From NCBI RefSeq assembly GCF_002176815.1, contig NZ_CP021648.1, positions 3,756,001 to 3,820,000 on the forward strand: a DNA stretch of 64,000 bases. Reading direction: 5' to 3'. Made by a program: the position numbers and the translations under genes. This DNA comes from Acidovorax sp. T1. GTDB lineage: Bacteria > Pseudomonadota > Gammaproteobacteria > Burkholderiales > Burkholderiaceae_C. The notes below the pieces were generated by a model, which had not been told where the DNA came from, did not search any database, and saw nothing but the letters and a program-made list of their open reading frames with translations. Of this stretch, positions 23,759 to 41,715 are shown one piece after another (within the stretch, counting starts at the first letter, position 1; every line of letters starts with the position of its first letter).

Positions 23759-24433
23759 ATGTGCCAGCTGCTTGGAATGAACAGCAACACCCCCACGGAC
23801 ATTACCTTCAGCTTTCGGGGGTTTGCCCAACGTGGCGGCAATACGGCGGACCACGCGGATGGTTGGGGCATCGCCTTCTTTGAAGACCGGGGCCTGCGCC
23901 ACTTCGTGGATCATCAGCGCGCCGCAGACTCGCCCATTGCGGAGCTCATCCGACACTATCCCATCAAGAGCCTCAACGTCATCGCCCATATCCGCAAGGC
24001 CACCCAGGGCCCGGTCAGCCTGCAAAACTGCCACCCTTTCGTCCGGGAACTGTGGGGGCGCTACTGGGTTTTTGCGCACAACGGCGATCTGAAGGAATTT
24101 CGGCCCCGGTTGCATGCGCATTTTCATCCGGTGGGCAACACCGACAGCGAACATGCCTTTTGCTGGCTGCTGCAAGAACTTGCGAAATCGCATGCCGGAA
24201 TGCCCCGCATCGAAGAGCTCACACGCACGTTACGCGAACTGACGCCGCGGATTGCAGCGCACGGCACGTTCAATTTTCTGCTGTCCAACGGAGAAGCACT
24301 GTGGGCCCACGCATCCACCCACCTCTATCACCTGGAACGGCACCATCCTTTTGCTGTGGCACAGCTCTCGGATGAAGATCTCAGCATCGATTTCGCCCCC
24401 CTCACCAGTAAGCGCACGGCAAACCCATGTTGA
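23759..24433 (+). pseudogene. Class II glutamine amidotransferase (YafJ-like), 3' end removed by IS66
   Basis: Residues 1 to about 216 are native. The nucleophile is Cys2 (MCQLLGMNS), followed by the Ntn-hydrolase glutamine-site motifs RGGNTADHADGWGIAFF, HIRKATQGPV and FAHNGDLKEF. The IS66 left end starts at 24408, and the last eight residues (SKRTANPC) and the TGA stop come from the IS terminal repeat. Homologues are typically some 40-60 residues longer, so the C-terminal strands of the fold are lost. The N-terminal active site is intact, so residual activity cannot be excluded. Confidence 0.85.
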
Positions 24434-24459
24434 CCGCAGATGGCTACCATGGCTGACGA

Positions 24460-26016
24460 TCAGATGTCGGTGGGCTGCCAGCGGTGCGGCAAGAGCTCGT
24501 CGATACGGCTGGCCTTGTGCGTGGGCAGCCTGGTGAGCACGTCCTGTAGGTAGGCATAGGGGTCATGCCCGTTCATGCGTGCCGACTGCACCAGACTCAT
24601 CACCGCCGCCGCACGCTGGCCCGCGCGCAGGCTGCCGGCGAACAGCCAGTTGTTGCGTCCAATGGCAATCGGCCGGATCTGGTTTTCGATCCAGTTGTTG
24701 TCCACGGGCAGTTGCCCGTCATCAACGAAGCGCGTCAGTGCAGTCCAGCGCCGCAGGCTGTAATCCAGGGCCCTGGCAGTCGCCGAGCTGTCTGGCAGCT
24801 TTTGCCGCTGCAATGTCATCCACTGGTGTAACGCATCCAGGATCGGCTTGGTGTGCTGCTGACGAATGGCTTTGCGTTGATCGGCGTTCAGCTCCTTGAC
24901 CTCGCGCTCGATGTCGTAAACCTTGGCGAACTGCTCCAGCGCGAACCCGGCAAGCTGGCTTTTGTTCGCCGCATGCAAGTCAAAGAATTTGCGCCGGGCG
25001 TGCGCCAGGCAGCCCACCTCGGTCACACCGTTGGCGATCGTGGCTTTGTAACCAGCAAAGTCGTCGCAGACCAGTGCCCCCTTCCAATCGCCCAGGAAGT
25101 GGCGCGCATGCTCGCCCGCCCTGGATTCGCAGAAGTCGTACACCACTGCCTTGATGTCTTCGAAGGCGCCAGGTGCGTAGGCCCAGAGATATGCGCGGTG
25201 CGTTGTGCCCTTGCCAGGCTTGAGCATCTGCACCGGCGTCTCGTCGGCGTGCAGCACGCTGCGGCTGAGTATCTCCGCCTTGAGCGCATCGACCAGCGGT
25301 TGCAGTCGCACGCCACAGGTGCCCACCCACTGCGCCAGGGTGGAGCGAGGCAGGCCCAAGCCTGCGCGAGCAAAGATGGCTTCCTGACGGTACAGGGGCA
25401 GGTGGTCGGCGTACTTGGCCACCAGCACCTGGGCCAGCAGGCCCGCAGTCGGGATGCCCTTGTCGATCACATGCGCCTCGACCGGCACCTGGGTGATGGT
25501 CTCGCACTTGGCGCAGGCCCACTTGCCACGGATGTGGCGCTCCACCGTGAACACGCCGGGCACATAGTCCAGCTTTTCGGCCACGTCTTCACCGATGCGC
25601 TTCATCGCACAACCACAGGCGCAGGTAGTCAACTCAGGCTCGTGGCGGATCTCGCGCCGCGGCAGGTTGGCCGGCAGCGGCTGGCGTTTGGGCTGTTGCT
25701 TGGCTTCGGGCGCAGCCGCTGGTGGCTGGAGTTGCTCGATCTCGATGGCGACCGCTGCCAGGTCGGCCTCGATCTCGTCTTCGAGCAAGCTGCGCTGCTC
25801 GGCGTTGAAGCGTTCGGACTGGGCGGCGAACTTCATTCGCTTGAGCAGCGCGTTTTCATGGGTGAGCTTGGCGTTGAGCGCCTGGCTGTGCTTGAGTTCC
25901 GTTTGGTGGCGGGCGATTTGCGCGTCCTTGTCGCTCACGTGGCCCATGAGGCTGGCGACCATCTCGCGCAGTTGCTCTGCGCTGAGATCGTTCAGGGATT
26001 GTTGCTGCACCACCAT
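24460..26016 (-). CDS. IS66 TnpC transposase (copy 1)
   Basis: The protein has 518 residues. An N-terminal coiled coil (about 25-90) is followed by a zinc-finger CACGCAM...CAKCET region, then the DDE catalytic core: the first Asp in LHADETPVQM, the second in VCDDFAGYK, and the Glu in NNWIENQIRP. It is full length with no stop, so probably functional. Its N-terminal two thirds is identical to copy 2, while the last third differs at many residues (for example GALVCDDFAGYKATIANGVT here against GSLVCDDFGGYKAGFAQGIT in copy 2). Confidence 0.95.
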   Translation of the reverse strand: MVVQQQSLNDLSAEQLREMVASLMGHVSDKDAQIARHQTELKHSQALNAKLTHENALLKRMKFAAQSERFNAEQRSLLEDEIEADLAAVAIEIEQLQPPAAAPEAKQQPKRQPLPANLPRREIRHEPELTTCACGCAMKRIGEDVAEKLDYVPGVFTVERHIRGKWACAKCETITQVPVEAHVIDKGIPTAGLLAQVLVAKYADHLPLYRQEAIFARAGLGLPRSTLAQWVGTCGVRLQPLVDALKAEILSRSVLHADETPVQMLKPGKGTTHRAYLWAYAPGAFEDIKAVVYDFCESRAGEHARHFLGDWKGALVCDDFAGYKATIANGVTEVGCLAHARRKFFDLHAANKSQLAGFALEQFAKVYDIEREVKELNADQRKAIRQQHTKPILDALHQWMTLQRQKLPDSSATARALDYSLRRWTALTRFVDDGQLPVDNNWIENQIRPIAIGRNNWLFAGSLRAGQRAAAVMSLVQSARMNGHDPYAYLQDVLTRLPTHKASRIDELLPHRWQPTDI

Positions 26017-26081
26017 GGCAGCCAGTGTGCCAAGGAAGATCCTGGGCTGTCATGCGCAGATCCACGGATTGCGCGCCGGCT

Positions 26082-26414
26082 TCAGACCATGGTGATGATG
26101 CCGGCGTCTCCCATGCGCTGCCAGGGCAGGCCCAAGACCAGGGCGTCAAGCTGGGAGCGCTCGAGCTGCCAATGGGCATCGACCGGCGCCGGCCAGGCGA
26201 ACTTGCCCTGGTGCAGGCGGCGAGCGGCCAGCCAGATGCCGATGCCGTCGTGCACCAGCACCTTCATGCGGTTGGCGCGCTTGTTGGCGAATAGATAGGC
26301 ATGGTGGGGGTGGGCGGCGCCGAAGACGCTGACGACCCGGGCCAAGGCCGTGTCGGTACCGGCGCGCATGTCCAGCGGGGCGGTGGCCAGCCAGGCGGCG
26401 TCGATGCGGATCAT
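26082..26414 (-). CDS. IS66 TnpB accessory protein (copy 1)
   Basis: This is the 110-residue IS66 Orf2-like protein (LDMRAGTDTALARVV, HAYLFANKRANRMKVLVHDGIGIWL), required for transposition but of undefined biochemistry. Its start overlaps the tnpA stop by 4 bases, the usual translational coupling in IS66 elements. Confidence 0.93.
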   Translation of the reverse strand: MIRIDAAWLATAPLDMRAGTDTALARVVSVFGAAHPHHAYLFANKRANRMKVLVHDGIGIWLAARRLHQGKFAWPAPVDAHWQLERSQLDALVLGLPWQRMGDAGIITMV

Positions 26415-40863: not shown

Positions 40864-40928
40864 GGCAGCCAGTGTGCCAAGGAAGATCCTGGGCTGTCAT
40901 GCGCAGATCCACGGATTGCGCGCCGGCT

Positions 40929-41261
40929 TCAGACCATGGTGATGATGCCGGCGTCTCCCATGCGCTGCCAGGGCAGGCCCAAGACCAGGGCGTCAAGCTG
41001 GGAGCGCTCGAGCTGCCAATGGGCATCGACCGGCGCCGGCCAGGCGAACTTGCCCTGGTGCAGGCGGCGAGCGGCCAGCCAGATGCCGATGCCGTCGTGC
41101 ACCAGCACCTTCATGCGGTTGGCGCGCTTGTTGGCGAATAGATAGGCATGGTGGGGGTGGGCGGCGCCGAAGACGCTGACGACCCGGGCCAAGGCCGTGT
41201 CGGTACCGGCGCGCATGTCCAGCGGGGCGGTGGCCAGCCAGGCGGCGTCGATGCGGATCAT
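40929..41261 (-). CDS. IS66 TnpB accessory protein (copy 2)
   Basis: This 110-residue Orf2-like protein is identical to the copy 1 protein. Its start overlaps the tnpA stop by 4 bases. Confidence 0.93.
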   Translation of the reverse strand: MIRIDAAWLATAPLDMRAGTDTALARVVSVFGAAHPHHAYLFANKRANRMKVLVHDGIGIWLAARRLHQGKFAWPAPVDAHWQLERSQLDALVLGLPWQRMGDAGIITMV

Positions 41262-41638
41262 CGCAAGAGCTCGCGAAGGAGTGCCCCGCATTGCGAGAGC
41301 GGGCATTGCAGGCGCACCAGCAATTCGCCGCGCTGGATCTGCAGATCAACCTCGGGCAAGGATTGCTCGCCAGCAGGCTCAGCCTGCTTGGCAGGCAGCG
41401 CTGCTGGAATGAATGGGACAGTCGGCATCCTCAAAGGCACGAATGCGGGCGGTGCCAATGCTTGCCGCTCTCGCTGCTCGCGGATCCAGCGGTGCACCAT
41501 GTTCGAGTGCAGTCCCTGCGCCAGGGCCACGCCGCCGACGCTGGCACCGGGCTGGGCGCAGCGGGTCAGTACCTCTGCCTTGAATTGCTTGCTGTACTCA
41601 CGCCGCCGTGGGCGGTCTTGGTTCAAAGATTGCTCCAT
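41258..41638 (-). CDS. IS66 TnpA (copy 2)
   Basis: This 126-residue HTH protein matches copy 1 except near the N-terminus and linker (MEQSLNQDR, AQPGASVGGVALAQGLHS, RQALAPPAF). The differences start just outside the identical block, consistent with a recombination boundary inside tnpA. Confidence 0.9.
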   Translation of the reverse strand: MEQSLNQDRPRRREYSKQFKAEVLTRCAQPGASVGGVALAQGLHSNMVHRWIREQRERQALAPPAFVPLRMPTVPFIPAALPAKQAEPAGEQSLPEVDLQIQRGELLVRLQCPLSQCGALLRELLR

Positions 41639-41715
41639 CGTCTCCACGAGACTCCATCGGGGGGACGATGCCCGCTTCAAGCGCTGCCTTCAAGATGGGA
41701 TCACCGTGCGCTTAC

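What the first reader, a model, noticed from the sequence alone, without database searches (positions are those of the whole stretch)
24408..41715. A 12.4-kb segment looks like a circular unit integrated by IS66 x IS66 recombination
Four sequence facts fit one event. (1) The 8 bases inside copy 1 (26,869-26,876) and inside copy 2 (39,248-39,255) are both GATGCAAG, the length of an IS66 target duplication. (2) The outer flanks (CCTCACCA, TGCCCCCC) match neither these nor each other. (3) The outermost IS ends share GTAAGCGCACGG, while the inner ends are different (GTATGCAGCTGG, GTAAGGGCGCGG), so the ends pair outer with outer. (4) Closing the interior at GATGCAAG places coaBC-orf directly before dut, the conserved dfp-dut order known from E. 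coli and others. The simplest model is a circle (one IS66 plus 12.4 kb) that recombined into a resident IS66. This resembles IS26 translocatable units, which as far as I know are not a described behaviour of IS66. Misassembly across the repeats is the main alternative.
Basis: partly seen in the sequence, partly recalled or inferred. Interest (0 to 1): 0.85.

Follow-up and report, generated by a model that had tools for sequence, protein, structure and literature searches.

The report
Foreign DNA circle landed in IS66
A 12.4-kb piece of chromosome from a Comamonas-like bacterium appears to have had its two ends joined and then recombined into a matching mobile-element copy in an Acidovorax-like genome, a sign that ordinary chromosomal genes can cross between genera without a plasmid or virus.

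Summary
Two direct IS66 copies (24408-26868, 39256-41715) enclose 12.4 kb with the octamer GATGCAAG against both inner ends; the outer flanks differ. The segment is Comamonas-like, in an Acidovorax-like host that keeps its own coaBC-dut-roxA locus elsewhere. In the five Comamonas loci aligned in detail the order is coaBC-orf-dut-...-roxA. The segment is a circular permutation of that: opened at GATGCAAG, closed at a second join (37303|37304) where sequence after roxA meets coaBC with 0-1 bp overlap and the coaBC start codon is lost. Comamonas relatives have no IS between orf and dut. So a donor stretch carrying one IS66 was ring-closed or tandemly repeated and entered a resident IS66. A 1501-bp identical tract inside otherwise 10-16% different IS copies points to homologous recombination; IS66 was probably only the homology. 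Unresolved: ring versus donor tandem array, the crossover point, which IS is the resident one, and the entry route. No reads were available; misassembly at the IS copies would not explain the 37303 join.

The parts
24408..26868 (-). IS66 copy 1 (transposase 24460-26016, TnpB 26082-26459, HTH orf 26411-26842)
   Evidence: Pfam PF03050, PF05717, PF01527; ends read
25106..26606 (.). 1501-bp tract identical to 39953-41453 in copy 2
   Evidence: exact comparison
26869..26876 (.). GATGCAAG, one half of the IS66 target duplication
   Evidence: no IS between orf and dut in Comamonas relatives
26920..27369 (+). foreign dut (dUTPase)
   Evidence: Pfam PF00692; 89-90% DNA identity to five Comamonas loci, 78% to the host's own dut
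27809..28549 (+). ORF with glycine zipper 2TM domain
   Evidence: Pfam PF05433
29237..30208 (+). DUF2076 ORF
   Evidence: Pfam PF09849
30688..32238 (-). FAD-linked oxidase
   Evidence: Pfam PF01565, PF02913
32791..33114 (-). c-type cytochrome
   Evidence: Pfam PF13442
33157..34629 (-). aldehyde dehydrogenase
   Evidence: Pfam PF00171
34918..35922 (+). AraC-family regulator
   Evidence: Pfam PF14525, PF12833
35714..37120 (+). roxA-like JmjC gene (ORF; similarity to the host's own copy starts at 35991)
   Evidence: Pfam PF08007, PF20514
37303..37304 (.). closure join: sequence downstream of roxA joined to codon 3 of coaBC, 0-1 bp overlap
   Evidence: five Comamonas loci break here on both sides
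37305..38522 (+). foreign coaBC, start codon lost, frame open from a GTG at native codon 4
   Evidence: Pfam PF04127, PF02441
38539..39039 (+). orf after coaBC, no accepted family
   Evidence: conserved after coaBC in Comamonas
39248..39255 (.). GATGCAAG, other half of the target duplication
39256..41715 (-). IS66 copy 2
   Evidence: 94% identical to copy 1 overall

Best explanation
An IS66 element (B) inserted between the orf after coaBC and dut in a Comamonas-like chromosome, duplicating GATGCAAG. A 14.85-kb stretch of that chromosome, from codon 3 of coaBC to 183 bp past roxA and carrying B, had its two ends joined to each other, most simply into a non-replicating ring. A single homologous (RecA-type) crossover between B and a resident IS66 copy (A) of an Acidovorax-like chromosome then placed the unit between two direct IS66 copies. 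Shown by sequence: foreign origin, circular permutation, near-blunt join, the octamer at both inner ends, absence of the IS at that site in relatives, native copies of the genes elsewhere. Inferred: the ring as a physical molecule, where the ends were joined, the entry route, the order of steps, and RecA as the agent. IS66 transposase is needed only for the earlier insertion of B.
For: Octamer at both inner ends. Five of five Comamonas loci aligned in detail have the colinear order and break at exactly 37303 on both sides, with the join inside the coaBC start. In the printed rows for 53 Comamonas genomes 15 end at 37303 on the roxA side, 16 start there on the coaBC side, and none extends more than 5 bases across (list cut). 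coaBC-orf and dut lie next to each other without an IS in the 9 of 13 loci where both sides aligned, and in 3 of 13 one alignment runs through the octamer site. Host keeps its own coaBC-dut-roxA. 1501-bp identical tract inside divergent IS copies. No replication, relaxase or integrase family in 15 ORFs scanned. Precedent: linear DNA ligated and entering by recA-dependent single crossover in E. coli (PMC3240628, abstract and discussion).
Against: No ring seen and no reads available. Ku found in 0 of 10 host- and donor-genus genomes, so how the ends were joined is open. A donor tandem array gives the same product. Outer flanks of the resident IS have no matching duplication, so its own history is disturbed. 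Both IS right ends are closest to Comamonas copies, so A cannot be cleanly called resident. In 8 of 13 loci the intergenic stretch did not align up to the octamer site.
Confidence: 0.75

Rival explanations
1. Donor tandem array: the stretch coaBC-IS66-dut-...-roxA was first duplicated in tandem in the Comamonas donor by illegitimate recombination; a linear fragment with an IS66 at each end, or a ring excised from the array, then recombined with the resident IS66.
For: Gives the same product, the same octamers and the same join. IS26 rings can arise from tandem arrays in a RecA-dependent way (PMC11102541, abstract).
Against: No array seen: none of the printed rows of 53 Comamonas genomes crosses 37303 by more than 5 bases (list cut). 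Needs one more step.
Confidence: 0.25
2. IS26-like transposase reaction: IS66 transposase made the ring or joined it to an end of the resident IS66 without exchange inside the element.
For: Final topology equals an IS26 translocatable unit; an IS2-like unit behaves so in Burkholderia thailandensis (PMC6350997, abstract and passages). End pairing within each copy (7/12 + 10/12) fits intact copies as well as hybrids.
Against: The 1501-bp identical internal tract needs exchange within the elements. The 37303 join lies 1.9 kb from the nearest IS end and has no IS sequence, so IS66 did not make it.
Confidence: 0.1
3. Misassembly: a separate ring, or another true arrangement, was placed wrongly at the IS66 repeats.
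For: IS66 copies are repeats with a 1501-bp identical tract; no reads available.
Against: The 37303 join lies in sequence that is single-copy in this genome apart from the 72-76% native homologues and cannot come from IS repeats. The segment has no replication gene among 15 ORFs scanned. The window lies in a 4.1-Mb contig of a 4-contig assembly. Contaminating Comamonas DNA would have the native order.
Confidence: 0.08
4. Ordinary composite transposon or two unrelated IS66 insertions, with the shared octamer a coincidence.
For: Two direct IS66 copies enclose the segment.
Against: No matching octamer at the outer ends; random octamer pairs agree in 84 of 2,000,000; does not explain why the two inner ends are neighbours in Comamonas or the permutation.
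Confidence: 0.02

Closest known systems
IS26 translocatable unit (IS6 family)
   Same: One IS plus adjacent DNA as a circular unit, ending between two direct IS copies beside a resident one, with no new target duplication outside
   Different: IS66 family; exchange inside the element; passenger is permuted chromosomal DNA of another genus with its own join; no transposase role shown
IS2-like megacircle of Burkholderia thailandensis (PMC6350997, abstract and passages)
   Same: Non-IS26 element; circle enters next to a resident copy; its authors say homologous recombination could not be ruled out
   Different: About 210 kb composite transposon with a transposase-dependent circle within one strain; here 12.4 kb of foreign chromosome
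Ligation of linear DNA followed by single crossover in E. coli (PMC3240628, abstract and discussion)
   Different: Laboratory plasmid constructs and conjugation; here a natural product between genera with an IS as the homology
IS-guided merodiploidy by transformation in Streptococcus pneumoniae (PMC3784515, passages)
   Same: IS repeats shared by donor and recipient DNA pair and leave extra gene copies bordered by IS
   Different: Duplicates the recipient's own chromosome in tandem; no foreign passenger or circular permutation

Membership tests
IS66 family | IS66 transposase, TnpB and a third (HTH) orf | tested here: met
   PF03050, PF05717, PF01527 in copy 1
IS66 family | 8-bp target duplication | tested here: met
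   GATGCAAG at both inner ends; GTATTTGC on both sides of a related intact copy at C1:514867
IS26-type translocatable unit | one IS plus adjacent DNA as a ring or its integrated product beside a resident copy | tested here: met
   inferred from circular permutation and the octamers; the ring itself was not seen
IS26-type translocatable unit | IS6/IS26-family transposase | tested here: not met
   IS66 family instead
IS26-type translocatable unit | exchange at IS ends by transposase | tested here: inconclusive
   identical internal 1501-bp tract speaks for exchange within the element, but parentage of the ends is unresolved
Composite transposon bounded by IS66 | matching target duplication outside the outer ends | tested here: not met
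   CCTCACCA versus TGCCCCCC
Homology-facilitated illegitimate recombination | one end joined to the recipient by homology, the other illegitimately to the recipient chromosome | tested here: not met
   the illegitimate join is donor end to donor end at 37303
Plasmid or integrative element | replication, relaxase or integrase gene in the unit | tested here: not met
   none among the 15 ORFs of the segment scanned (the short ORF at about 27.4-27.7 kb was not scanned); no plasmid record covers 80% of it, best cover 11%

The most novel reading that the evidence does not exclude
Insertion sequences act as general landing pads for foreign chromosomal DNA without any transposition: an incoming linear fragment that happens to carry an IS can be closed on itself and enter a resident copy by one crossover. 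This route would leave a diagnostic scar (IS-flanked, circularly permuted donor DNA with one near-blunt join and the target duplication on the inside) that could be searched for in all genomes.
Probability: 0.35. Interest if true: 0.75.

Novelty: new variant of a known kind. Interest (0 to 1): 0.6.

Why it matters
It is a natural, base-resolved record of chromosomal genes (coaBC, dut, a JmjC gene) passing between genera as a fragment whose ends were joined, with a shared IS supplying the homology. How chromosomal DNA without flanking homology or mobility genes enters a new genome is mostly inferred. Here the permutation and the join make the intermediate testable, and the same scar can be searched for elsewhere.

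Tried and rejected
Hybrid copies proved by inverted repeats: rejected as evidence (12+6 versus 7+10 matching end bases; an intact relative has 8/12).

Assigning resident and incoming IS by relatives: only partial. Copy 1's left part is closest to host-genus copies (92%; 94-98% over two pieces of a broken copy in this genome). Copy 2's left part is 100% identical over 645 bp to a copy in Comamonas genome G438. But both right ends are closest to Comamonas copies (96.6% and 99.6%), so parentage and crossover point stay open.

Ku-type end joining: 0 of 10 genomes (own, 3 of the host genus, 6 Comamonas); the control rang in 1 of 14, Bacillus subtilis. Plasmid carriage: 10 records match pieces, none covers 80%. 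Viral contigs: 0 exact matches to a 30-base pattern across the join; inexact matches were not sought there.

The missing half of the resident IS's duplication was not found. The right outer flank holds a 112-bp stretch found again at C1:2356529 of this genome (83%) and in G033 (81%); this did not settle its history.

A GATAAA at the roxA edge of the join recurs 17 bases before the coaBC break point in 6 of the 9 distinct Comamonas loci printed (GCTAAA in the other 3), but on the roxA side only G166 of five has GATAAA, the other four GGTAAA. Unexplained, may be chance.

In print: searches. In their listings I saw no title or abstract start describing an IS66 unit of this kind; the library holds open-licence PMC papers only. 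Apart from the passages and sections named in this report I saw listings only.
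Full report
Observation. Two direct IS66 copies, 24408-26868 (2461 bp) and 39256-41715 (2460 bp), enclose 12,387 bp that begin and end with GATGCAAG. Pfam gives the IS66 transposase, TnpB and an HTH orf in copy 1. 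The window lies at C1:3756001-3820000 of a 4.42-Mb genome of 4 contigs. A related IS66 at C1:514867 has a perfect 8-bp duplication, GTATTTGC, which shows the ends and duplication length for this kind of element; its own two ends agree at only 8 of 12 positions. The other facts stand.

The IS copies are mosaics. They share an exact 1501-bp tract; on either side they differ by 101 mismatches plus 15 gap columns in 705, and by 24 mismatches plus 2 gap columns in 263 (one search's figure of 1639 bp was an artefact). Sequence has passed between the copies inside the IS, as homologous recombination with conversion would do.

The segment is foreign. The host's own coaBC, dut, glycine-zipper stretch, a further orf and roxA lie in one row at C1:1223541-1227785, 72-78% identical to the segment. 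Other genomes of the host genus show the same row in the printed matches, for example G032, G005 and G008 (40 of 40 genomes match somewhere; list cut). Of 399 family genomes, 393 match a 3.56-kb query across roxA-coaBC; in the printed rows (list cut) only the window's own genome crosses the join by more than 14 bases, and the top outside rows stop at query 1604 (G166) or start at 1606 (G256, G325), all of one genus. By piece the DNA identity to five Comamonas loci is mostly 73-90%, so the donor species itself is not in the set. The host's native locus is closest to Acidovorax delafieldii 2AN and other Acidovorax among 80 named loci; hence 'Acidovorax-like'. G+C is 60.8% in the segment and 66.3% in window 1-24407.

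The segment is circularly permuted. In all five Comamonas genomes aligned in detail (G166, G481, G443, G477, G478) the order is coaBC-orf-dut-...-FAD oxidase-...-roxA; each aligns to the window first as 37303 to about 39.0 kb (38.99 kb in G443), then from 26.9 kb onward, ending at exactly 37303. G443 is colinear over about 11.9 kb; the others have extra DNA in the middle. Among the printed rows for 53 Comamonas genomes (list cut), 15 genomes end at 37303 on the roxA side, 16 start there on the coaBC side, and none extends more than 5 bases across. In 80 named loci roxA lies downstream of coaBC on the same strand in 51, upstream in 0, and was not found in the fetched stretch in 29, many of them short or cut.

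The closure join. The window reads ...GCCCGATAAA|CGTGTTCGCAGG.... The left part continues in Comamonas into other sequence after roxA; the right part is preceded there by ATGAATGA, the start of coaBC (C. terrae, L015, reads ATGACTGA). Overlap is 0-1 bp. The foreign coaBC has lost its start codon, though the frame stays open from a GTG at codon 4; expression is unknown.

The insertion site. Closing the segment at one GATGCAAG and comparing it with 13 loci, both sides align next to each other with no IS between them in 9; in 3 (G481, G477, L013) one alignment runs through the octamer site, in 2 it starts inside it, in 8 the stretch up to the site does not align. By eye the site lies beside a GC-rich hairpin-like stretch between orf and dut. 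So the two GATGCAAG copies read as the duplication of one insertion. Together with the join this requires that the donor stretch was circular, tandemly repeated, or joined end to end during integration. The unit is 12,379 bp of donor DNA plus IS and duplication, 14,847 bp, the spacing of matching positions in the two IS copies.

Where it landed. In G033, G037 and G027 the place matching the left IS end in the class-II GATase gene lies about 0.23-0.4 kb from sequence at the rRNA operon end (window 62.5 kb); in G037 and G027 the contig ends there. Here 24408-62518 lies between, so the segment is part of a 38-kb island bounded by IS66 ends. The rest of the island (41716-59897) has, in the printed rows for 46 other host-genus genomes, no colinear match beyond single genes and an IS21-type element.

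Mechanism. The least-step account is a linear Comamonas fragment carrying IS66, its ends joined, and one crossover with a resident IS66. Ligation of linear DNA followed by recA-dependent single crossover has been measured in E. coli (PMC3240628; abstract and discussion read). Ku was found in 0 of 10 host- and donor-genus genomes, so another joining route would be needed. A tandem array in the donor is the main alternative and gives the same product. The entry route is unknown.

Comparison. The topology is that of a translocatable unit. Such units are known for IS26 and, in Burkholderia thailandensis, for an IS2-like element whose circle enters beside a resident copy (PMC6350997; abstract and passages). 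RecA-dependent rings from IS26 arrays are reported (PMC11102541, abstract); an 8-13 kb ampC contig transferable between E. coli cells is reported too (PMC8430887, abstract). This case differs in IS family, in exchange within the IS, in crossing genera, and above all in the permuted passenger with its own join. It works like a translocatable unit, but I do not file it as an IS26-type unit: the transposase family is not met and no transposase role is shown.

Limits. No reads were available. IS parentage and crossover point are unresolved. Several search lists were cut. One case does not show how common the route is.

Noticed in passing
24408-62518: The segment is part of a 38-kb island between a class-II GATase gene (cut short at 24408) and the rRNA operon end; three host-genus relatives lack it.
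   Followed up: partly
59898-62518: A third IS66, 99.9% identical to one at C1:514867, has unmatched flanks (CAAGGAGC, GATAGGTG), and an inverted partial IS66 (59688-59897) abuts its left end.
   Followed up: partly
54232-56837: An IS21-type element with near-identical copies at five other listed places in the genome, one of them within a broken IS66 at about 1.89-1.90 Mb.
   Followed up: no
41970-53704: Catabolic-looking cluster in the island: AraC and LysR regulators, P450, ferredoxin-reductase-type protein, aldehyde dehydrogenase, short-chain dehydrogenase, TctC receptor, FAD hydroxylase, and a DDE transposase.
   Followed up: no
L165:3151-3795: 645 bp of an IS66 in Comamonas genome G438 are identical to the left end of copy 2, then the sequence changes abruptly.
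   Followed up: partly
26920-38522: The genome carries second, foreign copies of dut, roxA and coaBC beside its native ones; whether they are expressed is unknown.
   Followed up: no
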